Position numbers and translations under genes: made by a program. The notes under the pieces are model-generated. The model saw nothing but the letters and a program-made list of their open reading frames with translations. It searched no databases and was not told the origin of the DNA. Positions 9,584-26,469 of a DNA stretch of 64,000 nt are shown here, one piece after another. Source of the stretch: Bacteroidota bacterium (GTDB lineage: Bacteria; Bacteroidota; JABWAT01); the NCBI GenBank assembly GCA_023151185.1, contig JAKLJL010000002.1:507058-571057 (forward strand). The letters are read 5' to 3'. Within the stretch, counting starts at the first letter, position 1. Every line of letters starts with the position of its first letter.

Positions 9584-10603
9584 ATGAAAAAATTATCCTT
9601 CCAACTCACAACTCTGTTATGTCTGGTTTTGATTTCTGCACCCGTCAAAAGCCAGGTTTTTGATAAATATGCCGGAGAGTTTTTAGCCGGTGGTGTCGGG
9701 GCCCGGTATCTCGGGATGGGAAATTCTGCGGTTTCCTTTGTGAGTGACCCGTTTGCGGTTTACTGGAACCCAGCAGGAATTTCCGGGCGAACCCATTCAG
9801 AAATTGCCTTTATGCATCAGGAACGGTTCTCCGGTATTGTTAAAATGGATTTTTTGGCTTTTACCTATCCGGTTTCGGATCATGAAACTGCCGGTTTTGG
9901 TATCCTCAGAAATGGAGTGGATGACATTCCGGATACACGTGAAGGCTGGAAAAACTGGGATCAGGTTTATAACCGCCCTCCGGCAGGTTATGAGCCCGGA
10001 TTCTTTAATGCCGCAGAATATGCAGTCTATGCCTCTTATGCCTCTGCATCTTGGTTTTCGTTTCCTGTCGGGCTTAATGTCAAAGGAATTTACAGAAGCT
10101 ATGGATCAGTAGCTTCAGCCTGGGGAATCGGAGTTGATGCCGGAACGATTCATCAAAATCTGTTCGGAATTGACCGTCTTTCTGCCGGACTAACAGCCCA
10201 TGACCTTACCTCAACTCTGATTACCTGGGATAACGGCACTACAGAACTGATCTCACCTTCAGTTGAGTCTGGCCTCTCCTGGACCGCCGATTTTCTTTAC
10301 GGAACCTTCCTTGTAACCGGCGGCATGATTAACCGGTTCGAAGACAGGCGGGAAACCGCACGGTTTAACATCGGCCCGGTTTCCGGCGATTTTAAAGCCG
10401 GATTGGAATATGCCTATAATGGTAAAATTGCAATTCGCGGCGGATTGAATGAACTGAACCGGGTTAACTTCGGCGCTGGTTTTAAGCTGAATTCCCTCTG
10501 GATTGATTACGCCTTTGAATCTTTCAATGGCCAAAACGATCTGGGAAATTCACACCGGGTTTCAGTTTCTCTCGAACTGGATAAATTTTCAAGAACCAGA
10601 TAA
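9584..10603 (+). CDS. PorV/PorQ family outer-membrane barrel protein
   Basis: 339 aa with a signal peptide (residues 1-23, ending VKSQ) and the family N-terminal signature GGVGARYLGMGNSAVSF followed by DPFAVYWNPAGIS. The rest is alternating beta-strand sequence such as ASWFSFPVGLNVKGIYRSYG and AAIRG-like hairpins, ending SHRVSVSLEL. Members are FadL-like barrels of FCB bacteria; PorV itself is a type IX secretion shuttle, but many paralogues have no assigned role and no other type IX gene lies here. A bidirectional terminator at 10745 separates it from the convergent cyclase gene. Confidence 0.85.
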   Translation: MKKLSFQLTTLLCLVLISAPVKSQVFDKYAGEFLAGGVGARYLGMGNSAVSFVSDPFAVYWNPAGISGRTHSEIAFMHQERFSGIVKMDFLAFTYPVSDHETAGFGILRNGVDDIPDTREGWKNWDQVYNRPPAGYEPGFFNAAEYAVYASYASASWFSFPVGLNVKGIYRSYGSVASAWGIGVDAGTIHQNLFGIDRLSAGLTAHDLTSTLITWDNGTTELISPSVESGLSWTADFLYGTFLVTGGMINRFEDRRETARFNIGPVSGDFKAGLEYAYNGKIAIRGGLNELNRVNFGAGFKLNSLWIDYAFESFNGQNDLGNSHRVSVSLELDKFSRTR

Positions 10604-10742: not shown

Positions 10743-10775
10743 AAAAAAAAGACCGCCGGAGCGGTCTTTTTTTTT
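10743..10775. terminator. Bidirectional intrinsic terminator
   Basis: A run of A, then GACCGC (10751-10756), loop CGGA, GCGGTC (10761-10766), then nine T. It serves the PorV-like gene on the plus strand and the cyclase gene on the minus strand, whose stop codon lies in the T run. Confidence 0.9.
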
Positions 10776-13356
10776 ATTTGTGTTTCATCACGTAAACACC
10801 AGTCCAATCGGCGCCAGGAGGGTTTTCCATGAAATCATGGCACCGCTTGATGTAGGTTTTGGAGGGTCCGTCGTTTGGTTCAACGGTAAGAACCTGTTCA
10901 AAAACTTTGATTGCTTCAGAGAACTGCTGGGCATAATACAGTTTCAGCCCTTCATTGTAGATATAGGCAATTTTTTCCATATGAGTCAGGTCTTCCTCAG
11001 CAAGGCGGTCGGCCATCAACTCATAAACAGTAACCGGTTTGGTTTTTCCTTTTACCTGCAGAAGGTCAAGCTGACGGCAGAGGAACTCATCCTTTACCTT
11101 TTCGTAAGTAAATTCAGAAATCATGACCAGTGTGTCAAATTCTTTATTGGCAGGCTCAAGACGTGCTGCAAGATTAACCGAATCTCCCATGACGGTGTAA
11201 TTAAACCGGCTTGAGGACCCCATATTCCCGGCAACTACCTGCCCGGTGTTTACCCCAAATCTGGCAATCAGTCTCGGAAACCCCTGATCCACCCAGCCTT
11301 GAGCCAGAACTTTCAGTTTGGCTTGCTGTTTCATCACCGCCCGGCAGGCCAGAATGGCATGTTTTTCCTGCGGAATCGGTGCACCCCAGAACGCCATAAT
11401 GGCATCCCCGATATATTTATCAAGGGTTCCGCCAGCCTGCATGATGATATCGGTCATGGATCCCAGATATTCATTCAGCAGCACAACCAGTTCTTCAGGA
11501 GTCAGCATTTCAGAAATGGTGGTGAAGCCGGACAAATCAGAAAACATAATGGTCAGCTCAACCTTTTCTCCTCCCAACCGCACCGAGTCAGGATTTTCAA
11601 GCATTTTGTCGACAACTTCCTTGTTCACATAATGGCTGAAAATTCCTTTGATCACCTTTTTCTGCTTGCTTTCGGTCAGGTACTGGTAGGCGATTGAACT
11701 GAAATACCCTAAGATCAGCGAAGACATCAGCGGGACAACTTTTACCATGATCAGGTGCTGATTGAACAGATACTGGGCAAATCCAAGAATTCCATACCCC
11801 AGAATGCCAACAAGCAGAATATTGGCAAATTCCAGCGTTGTTTCAGCTTCGAACTTACTGCGGTGAAGCAGCCAGGCAGCAACCGCAGCCAGAATTCCGG
11901 CAGTCAGAAACGGCAAACTGAAATTGATCAGCGATATGACCGTCCAGGACTCTGCAACCGGCGGAAACAGCAGCATGGCATCATATTCAAAGACAAGAAC
12001 CAAAAGAATGTAAGCCGCCAGGTAAATTGCAGCAAAGGAGAACAGAAAATTAACCAGGAACAAAAACCAGGATGGACGGCTTTTCAGATGTTTAATCGAA
12101 GAAGTGACCAGGAAAATGGCAAAAGACACAACGAACAAAACAGAAAACAGGATCCAAAGTGGCAATGATGCAATATTGTTGCCGTCGATCAGGTTCTGAA
12201 CAGCCGTGGCGTGGATCTCGACGCCGTAAGTCAGGTTGGTTTGCTTACTGTCCCCTTTTCTGAACGGAATGGCAAGCATATCCTTATCTTCCGGGTTTGC
12301 AGATCCCACAAGAACCACTTTTCCATCGAAGGTTCCGTCGTACTTCAGAGACAGAGATTTCAGATTCTCAAGTTCTTCGTCAGATGCATTTTCATAATCC
12401 CGGGCGATTCTCTGGATTTTGGCATTATCAAAAACATCTTCCGCCCATTGGGTGTACAAGGATTCATCATTCAGAACTGAATCCACCGAAATACCGAAAT
12501 CCTCAGCAATCTGGCGGATATTGGCCTGTTCGGTATTGGTCACCATGGTGCTGTCATCCAGAACCTTATCCAAACCGATGTAAGTGAACGTTTGTGCCGG
12601 TCCGTAGTAATTCAGAAGAACGGTATAACCATCCCATTCTGGTGCGGAGTAAGATCCGATTTTAATCTGATCCTCTTCTTTTTTGATTATCAGCGGATTG
12701 TCATTTCGGCCATTTGCCTTGTTGTCCAGAAACTGAACAATTTCGAAGGCAAATGTCGGGAAGACCTGGCCATTTGAGGCAGTGTGGGTAATCGCATACC
12801 GCCGGATGTTCTCATCGCGGTCAGAAGGGACATAAATCAGGCCGAGTTTAACCCCAACCTTAATGTCATAAAAAATATTTCTCAGGTTCAGGGAGTCAGT
12901 GGTTTTTACTTCATACCGGTCTCCTGAAACACTCTCGGTTTCTGTTCGGCCGGCCAGTATGACATTGTCATAGGTAGAAAGGACTTCTTTCAGCAGCGAG
13001 TCAGATTCTTTATTTTTATAGTCTACACCATCAAATAAAATATCTATCCCGACGGCAGAAGCCCCGGCCTTGTTCATGTTCTCAATAAATTTGGCGTAAT
13101 AACTTCTTGGGAATGGATAGCTTGCCGGCAGATTATCGATGGCCCCATCATCAATCCCGATAATCACGACCTTTGATTTTTCAGCAAACCCATTAACCGG
13201 TCCTCTTTTCTCGAAGCGGTTGTCGATTGATTTCAGCTCAATATTTTCGAAAAGAGTTGTAAAGGTAAAAAGGTATGAGATCAGGACCACACCAATACTG
13301 ATCAGGAGGGCGGTGAAATAGGTGTTTTTAAAAAGATCAAACTTTGAATTTGCCAT
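10774..13356 (-). CDS. CHASE2-domain adenylate cyclase with C-terminal TPR-like tail
   Basis: 860 aa membrane class III nucleotide cyclase. Layout: a transmembrane helix at about 12-33; an extracytoplasmic CHASE2 sensor at about 40-390 (VVIIGIDD, GIDILFDG and GKVVLVGS are typical); about five further membrane helices at 400-570; a catalytic domain at about 590-790. The catalytic part has the metal Asp in FSDLSGFT and in GDAIMAFWG, the purine-reading Lys in TLDKYIGD, and YTVMGDSVNLAARLE with the transition-state Arg; Lys plus Thr indicate ATP as substrate. The tail (YYAQQFSEAIKVFEQVL) resembles one TPR. ATG 13356 (MANSKF) follows GGAG by 8 nt and is preferred to the start at 13383. Last gene of the FecR cluster. 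Confidence 0.92.
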   Translation of the reverse strand: MANSKFDLFKNTYFTALLISIGVVLISYLFTFTTLFENIELKSIDNRFEKRGPVNGFAEKSKVVIIGIDDGAIDNLPASYPFPRSYYAKFIENMNKAGASAVGIDILFDGVDYKNKESDSLLKEVLSTYDNVILAGRTETESVSGDRYEVKTTDSLNLRNIFYDIKVGVKLGLIYVPSDRDENIRRYAITHTASNGQVFPTFAFEIVQFLDNKANGRNDNPLIIKKEEDQIKIGSYSAPEWDGYTVLLNYYGPAQTFTYIGLDKVLDDSTMVTNTEQANIRQIAEDFGISVDSVLNDESLYTQWAEDVFDNAKIQRIARDYENASDEELENLKSLSLKYDGTFDGKVVLVGSANPEDKDMLAIPFRKGDSKQTNLTYGVEIHATAVQNLIDGNNIASLPLWILFSVLFVVSFAIFLVTSSIKHLKSRPSWFLFLVNFLFSFAAIYLAAYILLVLVFEYDAMLLFPPVAESWTVISLINFSLPFLTAGILAAVAAWLLHRSKFEAETTLEFANILLVGILGYGILGFAQYLFNQHLIMVKVVPLMSSLILGYFSSIAYQYLTESKQKKVIKGIFSHYVNKEVVDKMLENPDSVRLGGEKVELTIMFSDLSGFTTISEMLTPEELVVLLNEYLGSMTDIIMQAGGTLDKYIGDAIMAFWGAPIPQEKHAILACRAVMKQQAKLKVLAQGWVDQGFPRLIARFGVNTGQVVAGNMGSSSRFNYTVMGDSVNLAARLEPANKEFDTLVMISEFTYEKVKDEFLCRQLDLLQVKGKTKPVTVYELMADRLAEEDLTHMEKIAYIYNEGLKLYYAQQFSEAIKVFEQVLTVEPNDGPSKTYIKRCHDFMENPPGADWTGVYVMKHK

Positions 13357-13390
13357 CGGTTTCTCCGGTTTTCGAATCCACAATCATAGA

Positions 13391-13424
13391 AAAAAAAACG
13401 GACTCATGAAAGAGTCCGTTTTTA
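13391..13424 (-). terminator. Intrinsic terminator between the barrel gene and the cyclase gene
   Basis: ACGGACTC (13398-13405), loop ATGAAA, GAGTCCGT (13412-13419), flanked by A8 on the left and T5 on the right. On the minus strand the T run follows the stem, between the stop of the barrel gene (13445) and the cyclase start (13356). Confidence 0.85.
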
Positions 13425-13444
13425 ATGTCACGTAACAGGTTCCC

Positions 13445-15973
13445 TTAAAAAATATACTGAACCCTGAAGGTGAACAGCAGATCTGCATCTGATCCTTCAT
13501 TCAGGATAAAGTTTGCATCTGAGGTTGCAAATAGATTTTTCAGGAAGTAATACTGTGCATTGGCTCCAAAAATGTATTGGTTCACATCACTCAATGTCAT
13601 GTTGGCCCGTACATTTGCCTGAAGTTTATTATCCAGAAAACTTTTTCCTAAACTGCCTTCAAGAATATTGTAGCTTTGCTCCTTGGTGGTAAAGTACCCA
13701 TAACCGGTTATCCCTTTGGTTCCGGTGCTGTCGTTGGTAAGGACTTCCCTATATTCCGAACTGGAATTGTTGTAGGAAAGATTAAAGCTCAAATCCTGCC
13801 CGATGGTTGTACCATAGGCCAGAACGACAGACTGTACCTTTTGCTGGGCACTTGCATACCCATTCTGGAACAGGTACACTTTTTCATCTCTCAGATCCTT
13901 TTTATCTGTCAATGAGTAGGAAAGACTGGTAGTATGATACCCGTTCATCCAGCTAAAACCGTAATTGGTACTGATCTGGAAGGTGTTCGAGGCATTGTTT
14001 TGTGAGGCAACCTGGTTTTCAGGGATTTCATTCACACTCGCAAGCCGGATGTAATCGAAAGAAAGACTGGGCAGGCCGCCACCCGGGAAGAAGGAAATTC
14101 CGGTTCTGATATTGTTTCTGGCGGTGGTTCCGTCAAACTTTTTCAGCCCAATCGAATCCTGGCTAACCGGATCATACTGAACTTCAGAGAAATCTTTTGT
14201 ACCGTCGGTATTATCGTAAAGTAGATCATACCCGAATGTCAGGAACAACTTATTCTGGAATAATCTGAGGCGGTCATTAAGTTTTACTCCCTGAATATCC
14301 TTTTGGAAAAACGGAAGTCCTTCAGAGTGGTAAGAAGTTCCGTTTCTCAGATATTCAACCTTAAAGTAATTGTTCCAGTAGTTGAGTTTCATTCCGGCTA
14401 AAAAGGCAGAATAGTTCAAAATCTGACTGGTACCGGTCGGTGCGGAAATACCTGCACTTAACGGGAAGATTTGGTTTATTGTTTTGTAAGCAGAACCCAA
14501 CTGGTCCCTCATTACAGAATCAAATTGCTGGCTGGTATACTTGATATCGTTATTTTCAAGGGACAAAGCAGCATCACCGTACAATTCAAACCGGCCGTTG
14601 TCATACCTGAGCTGAGCATCTGTAGATACCACAAGATTCGCAATTGCTTCCCCGCCATATTTATTGGATGTGGTATCGTCGAGAGATCTCAGGAAACCAA
14701 GACCCCAGTTAAACCCTTGTTTTTTCGAGCCGAAACTGGTTTTAACTGCAAGCAGTTTTCTGTCATAAGCACCGCTGGAGGTCTTTTTCCGGAGAGTTGT
14801 ATTCACTGCATTTTTGGACAATACCTGGTATAGCTCTCCTTTTAGGGTTTCAATCGAGTCCTTATCGGCAATGGTACGGAGGGTAATTGTCTCGCCCTCG
14901 AATTCGGCATCAATTGCCCGCTGCTGAAACCCGTAGCCCACATCTAAATTGATGTAATCAGATTTCAGGTTAGCTTCAAAACCTCTAACCCGGGTACCAT
15001 TCATCATTAACCGGCTGAAGGAGGGGTAAGCATCTCCGAATGTCAGGTCCAGGTATTCGGTTCCAAGTTTTAAAGTGTAACGGTCAATCGCCTGTTTCTT
15101 TTTGCTTTCTTCGGAGCTTTTAAACAGGTTGATGTTGTAGGTCAGCCAATGAATATTTCCTGAAGCACTTGCATTTGCACGGTCAGTCCCTTTGGTTCTG
15201 GCTGAGGTTTTTTCATACCGGTATTCATTCCAGACGTTACCGGCGAGGGAATAATTTTGCTCGGCTTCTTCTTCCTCTTTTGCTTCCTCCTTAGAAACCA
15301 CACTGACCGACCAGGTTAAGGGGCCTACCAGGGTTCCATCTTTTAATTTGGCTTCAAAGCTGACTGATTGTTTTCCTTTTGGCGGTGTTGCAGGAAAATA
15401 ATTCAAGGCATCTGCTGTGACCGATGCATCTTTAGTTACATCAGCGCCGTTAATCGTTAACCTGACAGAAGTCAAATCAATCTGGTCGGACAGAGAATAG
15501 TAGGACAGCATGATCATAAAATCTTCAGGTGCGGATTTGGAGCCGTTTTCCCCCATCATAACCACAATGGCATCGGTAAGCCCCTTGGGAGAAATAGTCA
15601 GGTAAGCCGGATTCTGGCGGTAATTACTAACCGGGTAAGTGGCTTCACTCCCGTCATCCAGACTGGCAACAAGGTAATATTCAAGCCGTGGCGGAACGGC
15701 AAATTCCCCCGAAATAAGGTACTTCCAGGCACCTTTTTCGAACCGCATTTCAGTTTCGGTAAACTCATCATTCGGAAGCCGGTACCCGATCACCACTTTG
15801 CTGAAAGTCTGTGCCGGATTGGATGGAGTCACCAGAATGGAGAAATTCTTCCCTTCAACCGGCTGAATATCGGTCGAAACTGTAACCAGTCCGGTATTTT
15901 GAGCAAGCAGGGGGGAGGTAGTGAGGAAGAATAACATAAAAAGGCAGGATGGAATCAATTTAACGAATTTCAT
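13445..15973 (-). CDS. Outer-membrane beta-barrel protein of unknown function
   Basis: 842 aa. Signal peptide 1-24 ending LLAQ. Residues 25-230 look like beta-sandwich extracellular or periplasmic domains, followed by a charged linker (KEEAKEEEEAEQ). From about 245 on, the alternating aromatic/polar strands are those of a large barrel, with GDAYPSFSRLMMNGTRVRGFE near 315 and a C-terminal strand LFTFRVQYIF ending in Phe, as barrel substrates of BamA do. No family recognised. It lies between a FecR protein and a CHASE2 cyclase on the same strand, each junction having an intrinsic terminator, so a role in envelope sensing is a contextual guess. Confidence 0.75.
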   Translation of the reverse strand: MKFVKLIPSCLFMLFFLTTSPLLAQNTGLVTVSTDIQPVEGKNFSILVTPSNPAQTFSKVVIGYRLPNDEFTETEMRFEKGAWKYLISGEFAVPPRLEYYLVASLDDGSEATYPVSNYRQNPAYLTISPKGLTDAIVVMMGENGSKSAPEDFMIMLSYYSLSDQIDLTSVRLTINGADVTKDASVTADALNYFPATPPKGKQSVSFEAKLKDGTLVGPLTWSVSVVSKEEAKEEEEAEQNYSLAGNVWNEYRYEKTSARTKGTDRANASASGNIHWLTYNINLFKSSEESKKKQAIDRYTLKLGTEYLDLTFGDAYPSFSRLMMNGTRVRGFEANLKSDYINLDVGYGFQQRAIDAEFEGETITLRTIADKDSIETLKGELYQVLSKNAVNTTLRKKTSSGAYDRKLLAVKTSFGSKKQGFNWGLGFLRSLDDTTSNKYGGEAIANLVVSTDAQLRYDNGRFELYGDAALSLENNDIKYTSQQFDSVMRDQLGSAYKTINQIFPLSAGISAPTGTSQILNYSAFLAGMKLNYWNNYFKVEYLRNGTSYHSEGLPFFQKDIQGVKLNDRLRLFQNKLFLTFGYDLLYDNTDGTKDFSEVQYDPVSQDSIGLKKFDGTTARNNIRTGISFFPGGGLPSLSFDYIRLASVNEIPENQVASQNNASNTFQISTNYGFSWMNGYHTTSLSYSLTDKKDLRDEKVYLFQNGYASAQQKVQSVVLAYGTTIGQDLSFNLSYNNSSSEYREVLTNDSTGTKGITGYGYFTTKEQSYNILEGSLGKSFLDNKLQANVRANMTLSDVNQYIFGANAQYYFLKNLFATSDANFILNEGSDADLLFTFRVQYIF

Positions 15974-15994
15974 GTAAACAACCCTCGTCTTTAT

Positions 15995-16035
15995 AAAAAA
16001 AAAGTAACCAGAACAGCTATCTCTGTTCTGGTTAC
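15995..16035 (-). terminator. Strong intrinsic terminator after the FecR gene
   Basis: Perfect 13-bp stem: GTAACCAGAACAG (16004-16016) with CTGTTCTGGTTAC (16023-16035), loop CTATCT, followed on the minus strand by nine T. It lies between the FecR stop (16073) and the barrel gene start (15973). Confidence 0.92.
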
Positions 16036-16072
16036 GTGATTCAACACAGTTCAGCTCTGAATCAGAATTTCC

Positions 16073-16771
16073 TTATTCGGAATACTCGATTTCAAGAGTT
16101 TTAGTGGTTCCGTCGGGCATTTGAACCTCGATGGTCATTTTCTTTTTCTGGCCAGGACCATCAGTGTTCATGTTATTAAGCTGATTCTGGTCATCAGAAG
16201 ACTGGTTCCGTTTTTGGAGGGAACCGGTTTTCTTATCCAGCTCAGCAGTCTGACCGGATCCGACCTGAACTTTTTCTCCGGTAGATTTATTTTCCAGTTC
16301 AGCTTCACCGTCATTGATCAGGAGTTTATCCTTTTCATCATCAGTTGCATAACCGCCATCTGTCCCGCGGATCGAAGCCACTGAGGTTGGAGAACTGAAA
16401 CTGAAATTTTCTTCTTTCCGTTTTCTGACATCGAATCCGATCTGACCCACATCAATCTGAACGTTCTTATTGATTTTGGTACCCGACCGGTCACTGTAAA
16501 CAACCAGTTCGCTGTTTGGCCGGATTCTGAGAATGGATCCATCAAGGAACTTAACTACCGCAGAGGCTTTCTCACCGGTTTTGATGTTATCCCCGTTGGT
16601 TAGTTTATCTGCCCGTTTGGCTTCCTTCCAGGCCCCTTTTTCCGGTTTGACTTTGACTTCATTATAAACACGGGTAATCACAGCAACGTCGTCGGCAGCA
16701 AGCATGTAGAAACCGCTTGTTGCCAGTATTGCAGCGAGTCCGCCGATGAGAATGATTCCTGTTTTTTTCAT
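16073..16771 (-). CDS. Secreted FecR-domain protein
   Basis: 232 aa. N-terminal membrane anchor or signal peptide (KTGIILIGGLAAILATSGFYML), then a FecR domain at about 30-175 with its usual pattern: GDNIKTGEKASAVVKFLDGSILRIRPNSEL, VGQIGFDVRK, and FSFSSPTSVASIRGTDGGY. The C-terminal part is rich in Gln, Asn, Lys and Asp. Classical FecR regulators carry a cytoplasmic anti-sigma segment; this one has none, so it is probably a ligand- or cell-wall-binding periplasmic module. The ribosome site is GGAG 9 nt before the ATG. It follows the 368-aa secreted protein gene by 16 bp and shares its transcript. Confidence 0.88.
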   Translation of the reverse strand: MKKTGIILIGGLAAILATSGFYMLAADDVAVITRVYNEVKVKPEKGAWKEAKRADKLTNGDNIKTGEKASAVVKFLDGSILRIRPNSELVVYSDRSGTKINKNVQIDVGQIGFDVRKRKEENFSFSSPTSVASIRGTDGGYATDDEKDKLLINDGEAELENKSTGEKVQVGSGQTAELDKKTGSLQKRNQSSDDQNQLNNMNTDGPGQKKKMTIEVQMPDGTTKTLEIEYSE

Positions 16772-16787
16772 TATGCTGACTCCGTAA

Positions 16788-17894
16788 TTATTTTATACCC
16801 ATTGATTCAAGATTTGCCTGTCCGGACTGCAGTTTTTCAAGAATTGCAACCAGTTCCTGAAAGGTTACTGATTTGCCGTCAATCATAACTGTTCCTTTAA
16901 CTTTGCCTGATTTGATCTGTTCAAATAAAGAGGCATAATCATCGCCAAAAATTGCTTTCAGCTTTTCGATAATCTGATTGGCGGCCATTTCTGAGGATGT
17001 TTTTGCAACCGGGATTGTAAACCAGGTCGGACTTGCCCACACCTCTTCTGCATTCGAGGAACCCATAGTATTTACCCTTGAAGCCAGAAGAACAGCATAA
17101 ATTTTCCCTGCCTGCAGATCTGAATTCGGATAACGTCTTACTTTATCCCGGGTGATGTCTTTGTATTGAGGTGTTTTATTTTTTAAATCCTCAACCGTTT
17201 TGTCAACGGTTGGGTCAACAACAACCACCCTGACTTCAAATTCCGGGGCGTCTCCGCTCCAGGAAATAACCGGATTTCTTTCATAGATTTCAAGCGGGTC
17301 CTCCTCAAGGAAGGTGGAACCGGGACTATTGATGGCGACGAATCCAGAGGGATTGCTGAGAGATAACGTCGCGGTTGCATCCACATCATTTATTTTTAAG
17401 TGGAATGTATAGGCCCCGGCAGGAAGCGGTGCCCCAACATTGATACTGGCAACATCTGTTTTATTGAAAAGAACTTTTGCAATGTCTTCCACCTGAGGAT
17501 CACCCGACACAGTAAAGGAAAACCGGCCGTCCTCCTTCAGTGCATTCACATTGGTCATAGTAATTTTTTCACCCGGTTTCAATACAACAGGCAGTTTGTT
17601 GTACATTTTCAGCGGAAGATCGGTGCCGTTATAATCCACCCAGAACCAGGCACTTTTTGCCGGAATCAAAGCCTCTTCAGACCCTGTGTTATGAACAGTA
17701 GCTCTGAACATAACCCGGCTGGTTCCGCCTGAGGACCTTGGGTCAAATTTCATCATGTCCCCAAACCGGATTTTATCCATTGCAGGAGAGGTTATTTCGA
17801 CAGAATGGTTGATGGTCTGCGCCCATGCCATTCCGGCGATCATCAGAACCGGGAGTGTGAGACCCCATTTTCTGACACTTGTTTTAGAACTCAT
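16788..17894 (-). CDS. Secreted protein of unknown function
   Basis: 368 aa with a signal peptide (cleavage likely after GMAWA, about residue 25). The body looks like beta-sandwich domains: about 27-190 including FRATVHNTGSEEALIPAKSAWFWVDY, which reads like an Ig-like domain, and about 190-300 with ISWSGDAPEFEVRVVVVD. The C-terminus (about 305-368) is helical, with a small 'KVKGTVMIDGKSVTFQELVAIL' hairpin. AAGGAG lies 6 nt before the ATG. First gene of the FecR-barrel-cyclase cluster. I do not recognise a family. Confidence 0.75.
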   Translation of the reverse strand: MSSKTSVRKWGLTLPVLMIAGMAWAQTINHSVEITSPAMDKIRFGDMMKFDPRSSGGTSRVMFRATVHNTGSEEALIPAKSAWFWVDYNGTDLPLKMYNKLPVVLKPGEKITMTNVNALKEDGRFSFTVSGDPQVEDIAKVLFNKTDVASINVGAPLPAGAYTFHLKINDVDATATLSLSNPSGFVAINSPGSTFLEEDPLEIYERNPVISWSGDAPEFEVRVVVVDPTVDKTVEDLKNKTPQYKDITRDKVRRYPNSDLQAGKIYAVLLASRVNTMGSSNAEEVWASPTWFTIPVAKTSSEMAANQIIEKLKAIFGDDYASLFEQIKSGKVKGTVMIDGKSVTFQELVAILEKLQSGQANLESMGIK

Positions 17895-18130
17895 AAGTTA
17901 CTCCTTCGTTAAATTGATCTGATGCAAACTTACCGATAACCATTTTCTGCCATCATGATGACTGTCACAAACCCTTTAAAAACAACTGATTTTTGTGATT
18001 CGCATCATTCTGATACTAAAACTGAATTTCTAAGTCTATACAGACTGAAATATCTAATGTAAAATTAAGATTAGCAACCCCTGACGGTCATTTTTGGCAA
18101 GATTTTTCTTTTTTAAGCAGGAAACGGGGG

Positions 18131-18171: not shown

Positions 18172-19308
18172 TCACATCATAAAACCAAGAAGAATACCGG
18201 CTGCAACGGCACTTCCGATTACGCCGGCTACATTGGGGGCCATGGCATGCATAAGAAGGTGGTTTTTCGGATCATATTCCAACCCGACAATCTGGGAAAC
18301 CCGGGCACTGTCCGGGACCGCCGAAACACCGGCATTACCAATCAATGGGTTGATTTTATTATCCCCTTTGAGGAAAAGATTCAGCAATTTGGCAAACATA
18401 ATTCCGCCAGCAGTCGCAACCATGAAAGACAAAGCTCCCAGTACAAAAATCAGGACAGATTTGGGGGTCAGGAAGGTTGTAGCCTGGGTCGATGCGCCAA
18501 CTGTCAGTCCGATCAGAATGGTGACCACATCAATCATGGGCTTTGCTGCAGTATCGGCCAGCCGTTTGGTTACTCCGCTTTCCTTCAGCAGGTTTCCGAA
18601 AAACAGCATTCCCAGCAAAGGCATTGCACTTGGAGAGATAAAGGTTGTGAGCAAAAGTCCAACAATCGGGAACAGGATTTTTTCCAGTTTTGAAACAGTT
18701 CTTGGCGGTTTCATCCGGATCACCCGTTCTTCAGGCGTTGTCAGCAGCCTCATGATCGGTGGCTGAATCAGGGGTACCAGCGCCATATAAGAGTAGGCCG
18801 AAATGGCAATTGCCCCGATTAATTCTGGTGCAAGCTTGGAGGCCAGAAAGATGGCAGTGGGTCCGTCGGCCCCACCGATAATCCCGATAGCTGCCGCTTC
18901 CTCCGGTGAAAACCCCAAAACAATTGCGCCCATCAGGGTTGCAAAAATTCCCAGTTGCGCTGCCGCACCCAGAAGCAGAAGTTTCGGGTTTGAAAGGAGG
19001 GTTGAAAAATCAAGCATAGCCCCGATTCCCAGGAAGATCAGTGGCGGGTAAATTCCTTTCAGTACCCCGAAATGGAGATAATTCATGACTGATCCCGGCT
19101 CATAAATCCCGACCTGCAGATTGGCATTTTCAAGGAACGGAACATTCCCGACCAGAATACCGAATCCGATCGGGATCAGCAGAAGAGGTTCATATTCCTT
19201 TTTAATGGCAAGGAAGATAAACAGCAGCCCGATGGCCAACATCACAATATGGCCAATGGTGAAATTGGCGAAGGCAGTAAGGGTAAAAAATTTCTCCAGA
19301 CCCGACAT
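18172..19308 (-). CDS. Sodium-pumping acyl-CoA decarboxylase beta subunit (OadB/MmdB/GcdB family), copy 1
   Basis: 378 aa membrane subunit that decarboxylates carboxybiotin and exports Na+. About eleven hydrophobic segments. Family landmarks are [20 protein letters not shown] (with the essential Asp of the Na+ site), [20 protein letters not shown] and [15 protein letters not shown]. Ribosome site GGAGG 7 nt before the ATG, overlapping the end of the biotinyl subunit gene 2 bp away. Last gene of operon 1 (alpha-gamma-biotinyl-beta). The paralogue at 25336 has the same motifs but clearly different loops, so this is an old duplication rather than a recent repeat. Confidence 0.95.
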
Positions 19309-19310
19309 GA

Positions 19311-19754
19311 TCAGCCTCCGATTTCAATCAGAAGGTCACCTTCAAGCACAGAATCCCCTTTTTCAACCCGTACCGAGGTAACAGTTCCCTCCTTATCCGA
19401 ATTGATGGTGTTTTCCATTTTCATGGCTTCAAGAACAATCAGTCTGGACCCAACCCGGACTGCATCGCCGGGTTTAACATGGACTTCGAGAACTGTTCCC
19501 GGAAGGGGTGATTTGATTCCGCCTGTCCCCTTTCTTTCGGTCGGTTTCGCAGTCCGTACTGTCGATTTTTCCATGTCAGTAGAGGGCACTGCCTCCTTCC
19601 GGACGAGAACGGGGGTTTTGGTTGTTTTTACCTCACGGTCAATTTCGACTGTGTAGGGCGTTCCGTTGACCTCGATTGTGGCTTTTGCGCCGTCAATGGA
19701 CTGGATTTCAACTTCGTAATTATTTCCGTTGATTGAAAATTTAAAGTTTTTCAT
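19311..19754 (-). CDS. Biotinyl (lipoyl-like) carrier subunit of the sodium-pumping decarboxylase, copy 1
   Basis: 147 aa. Carries CO2 as carboxybiotin from the carboxyltransferase to the membrane beta subunit. Residues 1-45 form a small beta domain, 46-80 a flexible charged linker with Pro and Thr, and 80-147 the biotinyl domain with Lys112 in LEAMKMEN. The linker is shorter and less Pro/Ala-rich than in copy 2 (26481). It lies 5 bp downstream of the gamma-like gene and 2 bp upstream of oadB. Confidence 0.93.
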
Positions 19755-19759
19755 ACTGG

Positions 19760-20248
19760 TTACGCCCTTTTTGATGGTGTCCGCTGAGGCATCTGGCGGA
19801 GGTTATAGATTTTAGAGTTCCAGGGTGAGTAGGTTCTTGCCACTTTCCGGATGGTCAAAACGGTATTTTCCTCGTCACGCAGTTGGTGCAGATATAAATG
19901 AAGTGCCATTGCAATGGCGGCATTGACTTCCCCCGAAACACTCAGATCCGTTCCCTTCGGAACGTCTTCATTTGTTTCCTTCATCACCTTTTTCCTGGAC
20001 CAGTTGTTGATCCGGTTTGAGATAAAAGCAAAGGTGAGATAAAGAAAGGTCAGGGAAAGAAAAACTATTCCCATTCCAATCAGAGAAATCATGACCGGAT
20101 TTCCGTTTCCGTTGATATCAAGAGACCAGAGCCGTTCAAAATAAACACCCAGTTCATCTACATTGGTTGTATGATGGGCAGGCGCCGTTTTCATGGCCGC
20201 CTTCAATGAATCGGCCGCAGCAGTTTGCATAATCAGAAAAGTCAGCAT
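19760..20248 (-). CDS. OadG-like gamma subunit of the sodium-pumping decarboxylase, copy 1
   Basis: 162 aa. A hydrophobic N-terminus (TFLIMQTAAA) is followed by a short periplasmic part, one strong transmembrane helix (PVMISLIGMGIVFLSLTFLYLTFAF) and a cytoplasmic tail ending PWNSKIYNLRQMPQRTPSKR. The helix plus short tail is the OadG plan; in known enzymes this subunit anchors the complex. ATG 20248 is chosen because GAGGGA, which overlaps the TGA of the upstream alpha gene, lies just before it; the upstream extension to 20275 would overlap that gene. Longer than the copy-2 gamma (117 aa). Confidence 0.85.
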   Translation of the reverse strand: MLTFLIMQTAAADSLKAAMKTAPAHHTTNVDELGVYFERLWSLDINGNGNPVMISLIGMGIVFLSLTFLYLTFAFISNRINNWSRKKVMKETNEDVPKGTDLSVSGEVNAAIAMALHLYLHQLRDEENTVLTIRKVARTYSPWNSKIYNLRQMPQRTPSKRA

Positions 20249-20255
20249 CTGTCCC

Positions 20256-21809
20256 TCACAGCGGAATATTGGCATGTTTTTTCGGAAGGTTGGTATCCTT
20301 CTTGGTAGCCAGTGACTGAAGTGCCCTGATCACTCTGAACCGGGTATTCCGGGGTTCAATCACATCATCAATATATCCCAGATTTGCGGCGATGTACGGA
20401 TTGGCAAATTTATTCCGGTAGTCCTCCTCCTTCGAGGCAAGGAAGGCCGTCTTTTCTGCAGGATCAGAAATTGCAGCAACCTCTTTCTGATAAATGATTT
20501 CTGCTGCGCCTTTGGGCCCCATAACTGCAATTTCTGCTGTCGGCCAGGCATAATTGATATCGCCTCTGAGGTGTTTCGAACTCATCACATCATAGGCACC
20601 GCCATAAGCCTTTCTCAGAATCACCGTTACTTTAGGTACCGTGGCTTCCCCATAGGCAAAAAGCAGTTTGGCGCCATGAAGGATAATGCCGCCGTATTCC
20701 TGTGCAGTTCCCGGCAGGAATCCGGGAACATCCACCAAAGTCACAAGCGGGATGTTAAAGGCATCACAAAACCTGACAAACCGGGCTGCTTTCCGGCTGG
20801 AATTAATGTCGAGAACTCCGGCCAGATACTTCGGCTGATTGGCAACAATACCGACGGCTGTCCCGTTGAACCGGGCAAATCCGGTAATGATATTCGGGGC
20901 AAAGCTTTCGTGTACTTCCAGAAATTCACCCAGATCCACAATCCGGTGAATGACATCTTTGACATCATAGGGTTTTGCCGGGTTGTCGGGTATGATTTCA
21001 TTGAGCACTGGATCAAGTCGGTCGACCGGATCTTCATTCGGGACAAAAGGCGGTTCTTCCAGATTGTTCTGCGGCAGGTAACTGACCAGTTTCCGGATCA
21101 GCAAAATCCCGTCCTTTTCAGAATCCACAGCGAAGTGGCAAACACCCGATTTGGTGGCATGGACTTCGGCACCACCCAGTTCCTCATCGGTCACGTCTTC
21201 ACCGGTTACCGTTTTAACCACTTTCGGCCCGGTCAGGAACATGTTTGAGGTTCCCTTCGACATGATAATGAAGTCCGTCAAGGCCGGAGAGTAAACTGCG
21301 CCACCGGCACACGGACCAAAAATAGCCGAAATCTGCGGGACTACACCTGAAGCCAGAATATTCCTTTCGAAAACTTCTGCATAACCGGCAAGAGATTTCA
21401 CTCCCTCCTGAATTCTGGCGCCGCCTGAATCATTCAGCCCAATAACCGGTGCTCCGGTTTTGGTAGCTTTATCCATGATTTTACAGATTTTCTGTGCATA
21501 CATTTCTGACAGGGATCCGCCGAAAACAGTAAAATCCTGCGCAAACACATAGACCATCCGGCCATCAATGGTGCCATAACCGGTCACGACACCATCGGTC
21601 AAAAACTGCTGACCTTCCAGGCTGGGCTCCCGGTGGGTAACAAACATATCAAATTCTTCAAAGGAACCTTCATCCAGAAGAAGTTCTATTCTCTCCCTTG
21701 CGGTATATTTTCCTTTGTTATGCTGGGATTCGATGCGTTTTTCACCGCCGCCAAGTCTTGCCTTGGCCCGCAAATCGAGCAGTTCTTTTATTTTTTCCTG
21801 GATCAGCAT
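20256..21809 (-). CDS. Carboxyltransferase alpha subunit, methylmalonyl-CoA decarboxylase/propionyl-CoA carboxylase beta family, copy 1
   Basis: 517 aa. Transfers the carboxyl group from an acyl-CoA to biotin. Two crotonase-like halves with the acyl-CoA motifs GGARIQEGV and [14 protein letters not shown], and biotin-side motifs [16 protein letters not shown] and [19 protein letters not shown]. Asp407 follows GGAY; in studied propionyl-CoA carboxylases Asp at this place goes with propionyl/methylmalonyl-CoA, so methylmalonyl-CoA is the likely substrate (inference). The downstream gamma, biotinyl and beta genes and the lack of a biotin carboxylase in the operon mark it as decarboxylase rather than carboxylase. 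First gene of operon 1. Confidence 0.93.
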
Positions 21810-25335: not shown

Positions 25336-26469
25336 TTATTTTCCTAAAATGGCCAGGAGAATACCGGCTGCAATGGCAGTTCCAACAACACCGGCAACGT
25401 TCGGTCCCATGGCGTGCATGAGCAGATAGTTGTTCGGGTTATATTCCTGCCCGACATTATGAGAAACCCGTGCGGCCATCGGAACGGCAGAAACACCGGC
25501 TGATCCGATCAGCGGATTGATCTTCCCGCCCGTCATCCGGTACATGATTTTCCCGATAATCAGCCCGCCGACCGTCGACATTCCAAAGGCAACGACACCA
25601 AGAGAAATGATCTTGAGGGTTTCAATTTTCAGAAACTGATCTGCAGCCATCGTAAGTCCCACACAGGTACCCAGGAAAAACGTCACAATATTGATCAGTT
25701 CATTTTGGGCCATATTGGTCAGACGTTCAACCACACCAGATTCCCTGAGCAGATTTCCACCCATCAGCATGGCCAAAAGCGGTGCAGCCGGCGGCACAAT
25801 GAAGACACCGACCACGGTTACTGCCAGCGGGAAGATGATTTTGATCTTTTTGGAAACCGGTTTTACCGGAGGCATTTCTACGGCACGTTCCTTATCCGTT
25901 GTCATCAGCCGCATAATCGGGGGCTGAATAAGCGGAACCAGAGCCATGTAAGAGTAGGCTGCCACTGCAATCGGACCCAACAGGTGAGGTGCCAGTTTCA
26001 GAGTCAGATAAATTGCCGTCGGCCCGTCAGCACCGCCAATAATTCCGATCGCGGCAGCTTCCTGAAGGTTAAACCCAAGTGCAACCGCAGCAAGCAGCGC
26101 TGCAAATACACCAAACTGTGCACCTGCCCCAATGAGGAATGTCTTGGGTGACGCAAGTAAGGGGCCAAAATCGGTCATTGCCCCGATTCCAAGGAAAATG
26201 AGCGGGGGAAATATTTCCAGTTCAATTCCCTTCGAAAGGTAATAGTACAACCCGCCGATTTCATTCCCGTGAGGAACTGTCAACAGGCCGTTTCCGGGCA
26301 GGTTGGTCAGAAAAGCGCCCAGCCCGATTGGCAGAAGCAGGAGGGGTTCAAACCCCTTTTTAATTGCCAGCCAGATCAGAACAGAGGCCACAACAAGCAT
26401 CAGGACCTGGCCCCATTCAAGCTGCCAGTAGCCCATACCATGAATGAACTTTAGAAAATTTTCGTACAT
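25336..26469 (-). CDS. Sodium-pumping acyl-CoA decarboxylase beta subunit (OadB family), copy 2
   Basis: 377 aa multi-helix membrane subunit. Same landmarks as copy 1: [20 protein letters not shown] (Na+-site Asp), [41 protein letters not shown]-terminus MYENFLKFIHGMGYWQLEWG differs from copy 1. It is the last gene of operon 2 (epimerase-alpha-gamma-biotinyl-beta), 11 bp after the biotinyl gene. Function: decarboxylation of carboxybiotin coupled to Na+ export across the inner membrane. Confidence 0.95.
   Translation of the reverse strand: MYENFLKFIHGMGYWQLEWGQVLMLVVASVLIWLAIKKGFEPLLLLPIGLGAFLTNLPGNGLLTVPHGNEIGGLYYYLSKGIELEIFPPLIFLGIGAMTDFGPLLASPKTFLIGAGAQFGVFAALLAAVALGFNLQEAAAIGIIGGADGPTAIYLTLKLAPHLLGPIAVAAYSYMALVPLIQPPIMRLMTTDKERAVEMPPVKPVSKKIKIIFPLAVTVVGVFIVPPAAPLLAMLMGGNLLRESGVVERLTNMAQNELINIVTFFLGTCVGLTMAADQFLKIETLKIISLGVVAFGMSTVGGLIIGKIMYRMTGGKINPLIGSAGVSAVPMAARVSHNVGQEYNPNNYLLMHAMGPNVAGVVGTAIAAGILLAILGK

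What the first reader, a model, noticed from the sequence alone, without database searches (positions are those of the whole stretch)
10774..17894. Four-gene FecR / outer-membrane barrel / CHASE2 cyclase cluster with terminators between genes
A secreted beta-domain protein, a FecR-domain protein, an 842-aa barrel protein and a CHASE2 adenylate cyclase lie in a row on one strand. FecR and CHASE2 proteins often occur together, but the barrel and the secreted protein are unassigned. Two strong intrinsic terminators (16004-16035 and 13398-13419) stand between the last genes, so the cluster should make graded amounts: most of the secreted and FecR proteins, least of the cyclase. The whole could be an envelope-to-cAMP signalling route.
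Basis: partly seen in the sequence, partly recalled or inferred. Interest (0 to 1): 0.6.

Follow-up and report, generated by a model that had tools for sequence, protein, structure and literature searches.

The report
Conserved envelope-to-cAMP gene cluster
Four neighbouring genes (a secreted two-domain protein, a periplasmic FecR protein, a large outer-membrane barrel and a membrane enzyme that makes cAMP) travel together across the Bacteroidota and related phyla, and they look like a signalling line from the cell surface to cAMP whose surface half is shared with a family of secreted bacterial toxins.

Summary
Four genes lie in a row on the minus strand, with two strong terminators between the last genes. 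The same order (called S368-FecR-BAR-CYC here) was found with all four genes recognised in 28 of 41 barrel-bearing loci. It also occurs in Calditrichota and partly in Spirochaetes. So it is a real, widespread module.

CYC is a CHASE2 class III cyclase with all catalytic residues. Upstream of S368, all four genomes of this lineage carry two CRP-like sites at fixed distances from a TAnnTTTG box, and the genome encodes a CRP-type regulator. This suggests cAMP feedback on the operon.

FecR-CHASE2 pairs are already known, and S. meliloti NsrA (barrel) to CyaK (CHASE2 cyclase) is an experimental analogue. What is new: S368 is distantly related to the TANFOR domain of Bacteroidetes polymorphic toxins (profile-profile probability 99.5%). 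BAR-family barrels sit near 41 of 69 large TANFOR/S368-like genes, always on the same strand. BAR is therefore the likely outer-membrane partner of such proteins, here wired to a cyclase.

Both terminators recur in all four lineage members; graded output is plausible but unmeasured. Verdict: new variant of a known kind.

The parts
17994..18009 (.). distal CRP-like site; TGTGATTCGCATCATT on + strand, centred 107.5 bp upstream of S368 ATG
   Evidence: conserved at exactly 69.5 bp from the TAnnTTTG box in 4/4 genomes of the lineage
17954..17969 (.). proximal CRP-like site; TGTGACAGTCATCATG on - strand, centred 67.5 bp upstream of S368 ATG
   Evidence: exactly 29.5 bp from the TAnnTTTG box in 4/4 genomes; the only pair within 100 bp in the whole genome
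17925..17932 (-). TAnnTTTG box (TAAGTTTG), candidate Bacteroidota-type -7 promoter element
   Evidence: present in 4/4 genomes (0.16 expected per 200 nt)
16788..17894 (-). S368: signal peptide, TANFOR-like domain, Ig/Fn3-like domain, long helix, small C-terminal domain
   Evidence: model; hhalign to TANFOR 99.5%
16073..16771 (-). FecR-domain periplasmic protein, N-terminal signal or anchor (residues 6-24)
16004..16035 (-). intrinsic terminator between FecR and BAR
   Evidence: also in G001-G003 and in L044, L048, L059, L065
13445..15973 (-). BAR: signal peptide, periplasmic Ig-like domains (about 30-225), outer-membrane barrel of roughly 26 strands (about 242-842)
   Evidence: (AF2 pLDDT 82)
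13394..13423 (-). intrinsic terminator between BAR and CYC
   Evidence: 4/4 in this lineage, absent elsewhere
10774..13356 (-). CYC: CHASE2 periplasmic sensor, membrane helices, class III cyclase domain, TPR-like segment, conserved C-terminal tail (start corrected from 13383)
10743..10774 (+). bidirectional terminator closing the cluster against the convergent PorV-like gene

Best explanation
The four genes form one conserved trans-envelope signalling unit. BAR is an outer-membrane barrel with a periplasmic Ig-like part that exports or displays S368, a TANFOR-like secreted protein. FecR in the periplasm reads the state of BAR/S368 and passes it to the CHASE2 domain of CYC in the inner membrane, which sets cAMP output. 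cAMP-CRP then acts back on the operon through two CRP sites placed at about -42 and -82. Terminators after FecR and after BAR lower the amounts of barrel and cyclase relative to the secreted and FecR proteins. Shown here: gene order, conservation, domain content, catalytic residues, terminators, spacing of CRP-like sites, S368-TANFOR relation, barrel-TANFOR co-location. Inferred: BAR-S368 export, FecR as relay, direction of regulation, graded amounts.
For: Order S368-FecR-BAR-CYC in 28/41 fetched BAR loci and in named Ignavibacteria, Melioribacteraceae, Balneolaceae and Calditrichota contigs; FecR, BAR and CYC with a partial S368 in one Spirochaetes contig, and BAR-CYC alone in another. Lineages with BAR elsewhere still keep an S368-like protein and a CHASE2 cyclase. 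FecR proteins of six loci carry copies of BAR's N-terminal Ig domain. CYC metal, purine and transition-state residues invariant in 28/28. S368 profile overlaps TANFOR hits in the same proteins and aligns at 99.5%. 41/69 large S368-like proteins have a BAR-family hit within 15 kb, all same strand; the small barrels are BAR homologues, E 2.5e-46. CRP-like sites at fixed spacing in 4/4; CRP-type regulator in the genome. Precedent: NsrA barrel to CHASE2 cyclases to Clr (PMC7529298, PMC13001267).
Against: No functional data. The BAR family occurs with TANFOR-like giants and no cyclase, so sensing is not its general role. Each CRP-like site has 2 mismatches to TGTGAN6TCACA, a best match as good arises in 15-17% of shuffles of a single upstream region, and 24 of 30 upstream regions gave no site better than P 0.05. 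Foldseek hits of BAR to ushers are weak in TM-score (0.26-0.33 by query length). The Ig-like second domain could inflate some S368 profile hits.
Confidence: 0.6

Rival explanations
1. BAR is only the secretion or assembly channel for S368, and FecR-CYC monitors general envelope state; the four genes are co-transcribed for convenience, not as one signalling line.
For: BAR-family barrels accompany TANFOR-like proteins with no cyclase nearby; BAR sits apart from S368-FecR in several families.
Against: The four-gene order persists across many families and into other phyla, and FecR shares BAR's Ig domain in six loci.
Confidence: 0.25
2. A receptor system in which BAR is a surface receptor for an external ligand, as NsrA is for a plant protein, and S368 is an accessory surface protein rather than cargo.
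For: NsrA precedent (PMC7529298, PMC13001267); a deltaproteobacterial FecR-TPR protein with a barrel-like C-terminus next to a CHASE2 cyclase (L129).
Against: BAR's tie to TANFOR-like secreted proteins points to a partner made by the cell itself. Homology of BAR to NsrA was not tested.
Confidence: 0.2
3. S368 and the TANFOR-like proteins leave the cell by the type IX system, and the adjacent barrel has another job such as anchoring.
For: The genome has 129 type IX sorting tails; the authors who described TANFOR toxins proposed type IX export (PMC7073777).
Against: None of the 129 tails lies in the four genes; the adjacent same-strand barrel is a tight and specific association.
Confidence: 0.2

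Closest known systems
FecR / CHASE2 adenylate cyclase clusters (Campylobacterota, PMC9239204; the Burkholderia CHASE2 kinase with LysM-FecR protein, PMC5192318)
   Same: FecR-domain protein next to a CHASE2 signalling enzyme
   Different: here an outer-membrane barrel and a TANFOR-like secreted protein are fixed members; no phosphodiesterase, kinase or LysM part
Sinorhizobium meliloti NsrA - CyaK/CyaD1/D2 - Clr pathway (PMC7529298, PMC13001267)
   Same: outer-membrane barrel, CHASE2 cyclase, CRP-family regulator
   Different: NsrA is one protein with a C-terminal barrel (residues 600-1200); here barrel, FecR and S368 are separate genes; sequence homology not tested
TANFOR polymorphic toxins of Bacteroidetes (TIGR02542, PMC7073777)
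   Same: S368 N-terminal region is distantly homologous; relatives sit next to BAR-family barrels
   Different: S368 is 368 aa with no toxin domain and does not hit the curated model; a barrel partner is not mentioned in that paper
Chaperone-usher ushers PapC/FimD and MtrB (fold level)
   Same: top Foldseek hits of the BAR model; large barrel
   Different: no sequence match, no usher Pfam domain, low TM-score; likely shared barrel geometry only
FecI-FecR-FecA transenvelope regulation
   Same: FecR domain between an outer-membrane barrel and the inside of the cell
   Different: no ECF sigma factor in the cluster, no cytoplasmic anti-sigma part in FecR, no TonB-dependent receptor domains in BAR; output is a cyclase

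Membership tests
FecR-CHASE2 cyclase clusters | CHASE2 sensor fused to class III cyclase | tested here: met
FecR-CHASE2 cyclase clusters | intact catalytic residues (two D, K, T, N, R) | tested here: met
   28/28
FecR-CHASE2 cyclase clusters | FecR protein encoded in the same cluster | tested here: met
FecR-CHASE2 cyclase clusters | cAMP actually made | not testable with these tools
   needs an assay
Fec sigma/anti-sigma systems | ECF sigma gene beside FecR | tested here: not met
   no such ORF in the cluster
Fec sigma/anti-sigma systems | N-terminal cytoplasmic anti-sigma part in FecR | tested here: not met
   hydrophobic segment at residues 6-24, only 5 residues before it
Fec sigma/anti-sigma systems | TonB-dependent receptor as barrel | tested here: not met
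   no Pfam or NCBIfam match in 34 BAR members apart from one weak CE2_N hit
TANFOR toxins (TIGR02542) | match to the curated model | tested here: not met
   none of 28 S368 proteins
TANFOR toxins (TIGR02542) | homology of the N-terminal region | tested here: met
   hhalign 99.5%, E 1e-22; same coordinates in six proteins
TANFOR toxins (TIGR02542) | C-terminal toxin domain | tested here: not met
   no such domain in S368
Type IX secretion substrates | Por_Secre_tail at the C-terminus | tested here: not met
   129 tails in the genome, none in these four genes
Chaperone-usher ushers | usher sequence domains | tested here: not met
Chaperone-usher ushers | same fold | tested here: inconclusive
   Foldseek E 5.5e-10 but TM 0.26-0.46 and rmsd about 16-27
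NsrA-type receptors | sequence homology of the barrel | not tested
   no NsrA sequence fetched; source paper not held

The most novel reading that the evidence does not exclude
BAR-family barrels are the dedicated outer-membrane export/display partners of TANFOR/S368-type proteins, an undescribed two-partner-like secretion route of Bacteroidota and neighbours, and in this operon the route is wired through FecR to a CHASE2 cyclase so that the cell senses export or engagement and answers with cAMP-CRP feedback.
Probability: 0.3. Interest if true: 0.82.

Novelty: new variant of a known kind. Interest (0 to 1): 0.62.

Why it matters
The signals read by CHASE2 domains and by stand-alone FecR proteins are largely unknown. 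A fixed barrel and a fixed secreted partner give a concrete hypothesis that can be tested by gene removal. The barrel link also offers a candidate export partner for TANFOR proteins, whose route out of the cell is an open question (PMC7073777 only proposes type IX). The conserved CRP-type promoter makes the whole loop measurable with one reporter.

Tried and rejected
Fec-type sigma/anti-sigma system: rejected (no sigma gene, no cytoplasmic part, no TonB receptor domains). Usher membership from Foldseek: rejected as a family claim (no sequence support, low TM). Viral fold library: nothing useful. PDB sequence search with BAR: only an Ig-like domain of peptidylarginine deiminase. Sigma-70 promoter scan: no excess (16 found, 15.5 expected). 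The search for related loci with the BAR alignment failed (no conserved stretch); the cyclase alignment was used instead. The upstream neighbours dxr-rseP (13 loci) and alanine racemase in other phyla look like plain synteny and were not taken as parts. The proximity count was taken from hit lists that are cut off, so 41 of 69 is a lower bound; at least one of the 28 'without' does have a barrel (G250:C12, L169).

Full report
What is there. The window holds four genes in a row on the minus strand: S368 (17894-16788), FecR (16771-16073), BAR (15973-13445) and CYC (13356-10774; the listed TTG start at 13383 is less likely, because relatives start at the conserved MA...). FecR has the FecR domain; CYC has CHASE2 and a class III cyclase domain; BAR and S368 match no Pfam or NCBIfam family above cut-off. 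BAR and S368 start with signal peptide-like segments, and CYC has the helices expected for an N-terminal anchor, a periplasmic CHASE2 domain and a membrane block before the cyclase (the S368 signal peptide is read by eye). The residues that bind metal, purine and the transition state are invariant in 28 of 28 relatives, so the cyclase should be active, most likely on ATP (K and T at the purine positions, as in class IIIb enzymes; family knowledge).

Is the neighbourhood conserved? Yes. The barrel was found in 78 of 296 genomes of the phylum with the single sequence. In 41 loci (the window and 40 others, fetched because they carry BAR), 28 have all four genes in the order S368-FecR-BAR-CYC on one strand; two more have it with the FecR gene probably missed by the ORF caller; three are partial or at contig ends; eight have BAR without the cyclase. 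Named contigs show it in Ignavibacteria, Melioribacteraceae, Balneolaceae and Calditrichota; in Spirochaetes one contig has FecR, BAR and CYC with a partial S368 and another has BAR-CYC alone. Outside these groups FecR-CYC pairs occur without BAR. In seven of the eight BAR-without-cyclase genomes an S368-like protein and a CHASE2 cyclase are still present elsewhere; where the S368 locus was fetched, S368 and FecR are paired.

What S368 is. The S368 profile also finds the N-termini of very large proteins (about 900-6400 aa) in other Bacteroidota. In six proteins the same stretch is hit by TIGR02542, the TANFOR model, and a direct profile comparison gives 99.5% probability, E 1e-22. S368 itself does not pass the curated TANFOR model, so it is a relative, not a member. 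TANFOR proteins were described as polymorphic toxins of Bacteroidetes with a signal peptide and an unknown way out of the cell, with type IX secretion proposed (PMC7073777). The AF2 model of S368 (mean pLDDT 81) shows two Ig/Fn3-like sandwiches, a long helix and a small C-terminal part.

What BAR is. The AF2 model (mean pLDDT 82) is a large barrel of roughly 26 strands behind a periplasmic Ig-like region. Best PDB fold hits are pilus ushers and MtrB, with low TM-scores, so this says large barrel and little more. The informative result is where its relatives sit: of 69 S368/TANFOR-like domains in proteins of 540 aa or more, 41 have a BAR-family hit within 15 kb, all 41 on the same strand and 32 within 3 kb. 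The expected figure for one random pair in a 4 Mb genome is below 1%. The small barrels (about 560-690 aa) are clear BAR homologues (hhalign 100%, E 2.5e-46). In two loci barrel and S368-like domain are in one protein (L159, L168). The TANFOR paper does not mention a barrel. I therefore propose that BAR-family barrels are the outer-membrane partners of TANFOR/S368-type proteins. This is inferred from co-location, not shown.

The FecR link. FecR proteins in L062-L065, L096 and L097 carry extra copies of BAR's N-terminal Ig domain, and in a deltaproteobacterium (L129) a FecR-TPR protein with a barrel-like C-terminus lies next to a CHASE2 cyclase (the barrel reading of its last 540 residues is by eye). 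Both suggest that FecR and barrel work in one place. The known precedent is S. meliloti, where the barrel NsrA is needed for CHASE2 cyclases CyaK and CyaD1/D2 to respond, with output through the CRP-family regulator Clr (PMC7529298, PMC13001267). FecR-CHASE2 clusters were noted in Campylobacterota and Burkholderia.

Regulation. Upstream of S368 two sites TGTGA-N6-TCAT lie at 17969-17954 and 18009-17994. In all four genomes of this lineage both are kept, although the region has diverged, at exactly 29.5 and 69.5 bp from a TAnnTTTG box. With a start about 12-13 bp downstream of the first base of the box (family knowledge of Bacteroidota promoters), the sites centre near -42 and -82, usual positions for CRP-type activation. 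The motif occurs 19 times in the genome against 3 for the reversed control, and this is the only close pair; the full CRP consensus occurs at 7 places against 1. The genome encodes a CRP-type regulator with the FGE...RSA and SRETISR signatures, related to solved CRP/FNR-family regulators including E. coli CAP, and in all 11 cNMP-binding proteins and 7 cyclases. In other families CRP-like sites upstream of S368 reach P 0.05 in 6 of 30 regions, about 1.5 expected: suggestive only.

Terminators. The FecR>BAR terminator is present in 4/4 genomes of the lineage and in four loci of other families; the BAR>CYC terminator is present in 4/4 of the lineage and in none of the others, where the gap is usually under 30 nt. 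Only about 30-50 nt remain between hairpin and next start, so a separate promoter after each hairpin is unlikely and read-through is the simplest reading. This supports lower output of BAR and CYC than of S368 and FecR, without numbers.

Verdict. A real, widespread module; the signalling reading is likely, the wiring order is inferred. It is a new variant of FecR-CHASE2 envelope signalling, with an unexpected tie to the TANFOR export problem.

Noticed in passing
17964-18004: An inverted repeat GTCACAAA...TTTGTGAC spans the inner halves of the two CRP-like sites and could also fold as a hairpin or serve another regulator.
   Followed up: partly
9584-10603: A PorV/PorQ-family gene (NCBIfam PorVQ2/PorV_fam) lies convergent to the cluster and recurs near it in 12 of 41 loci.
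   Followed up: partly
L039, L044-L047, L052, L057-L059, L062-L065: dxr and rseP lie directly upstream of S368 in most of the 13 loci that hold them; plain synteny or a link to envelope proteolysis.
   Followed up: no
L162-L166: S368-FecR pairs that stand apart from the barrel; in the two loci scanned (L162, L164) a queG-like gene is close by.
   Followed up: partly
L074 and L075 (G000): Two further CHASE2 proteins in the same genome, one a cyclase, not beside BAR or S368.
   Followed up: no
G000 whole genome: 129 type IX sorting-tail hits: a very large type IX secretome.
   Followed up: partly
window 18172-21809 and 25336-26469: Two genes for Na+-pumping decarboxylase beta subunits, the first with likely carrier and carboxyltransferase genes beside it.
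   Followed up: no
L159 5357-8407, L168 5010-7721: Single proteins that fuse an S368-like domain to a BAR-like barrel.
   Followed up: partly
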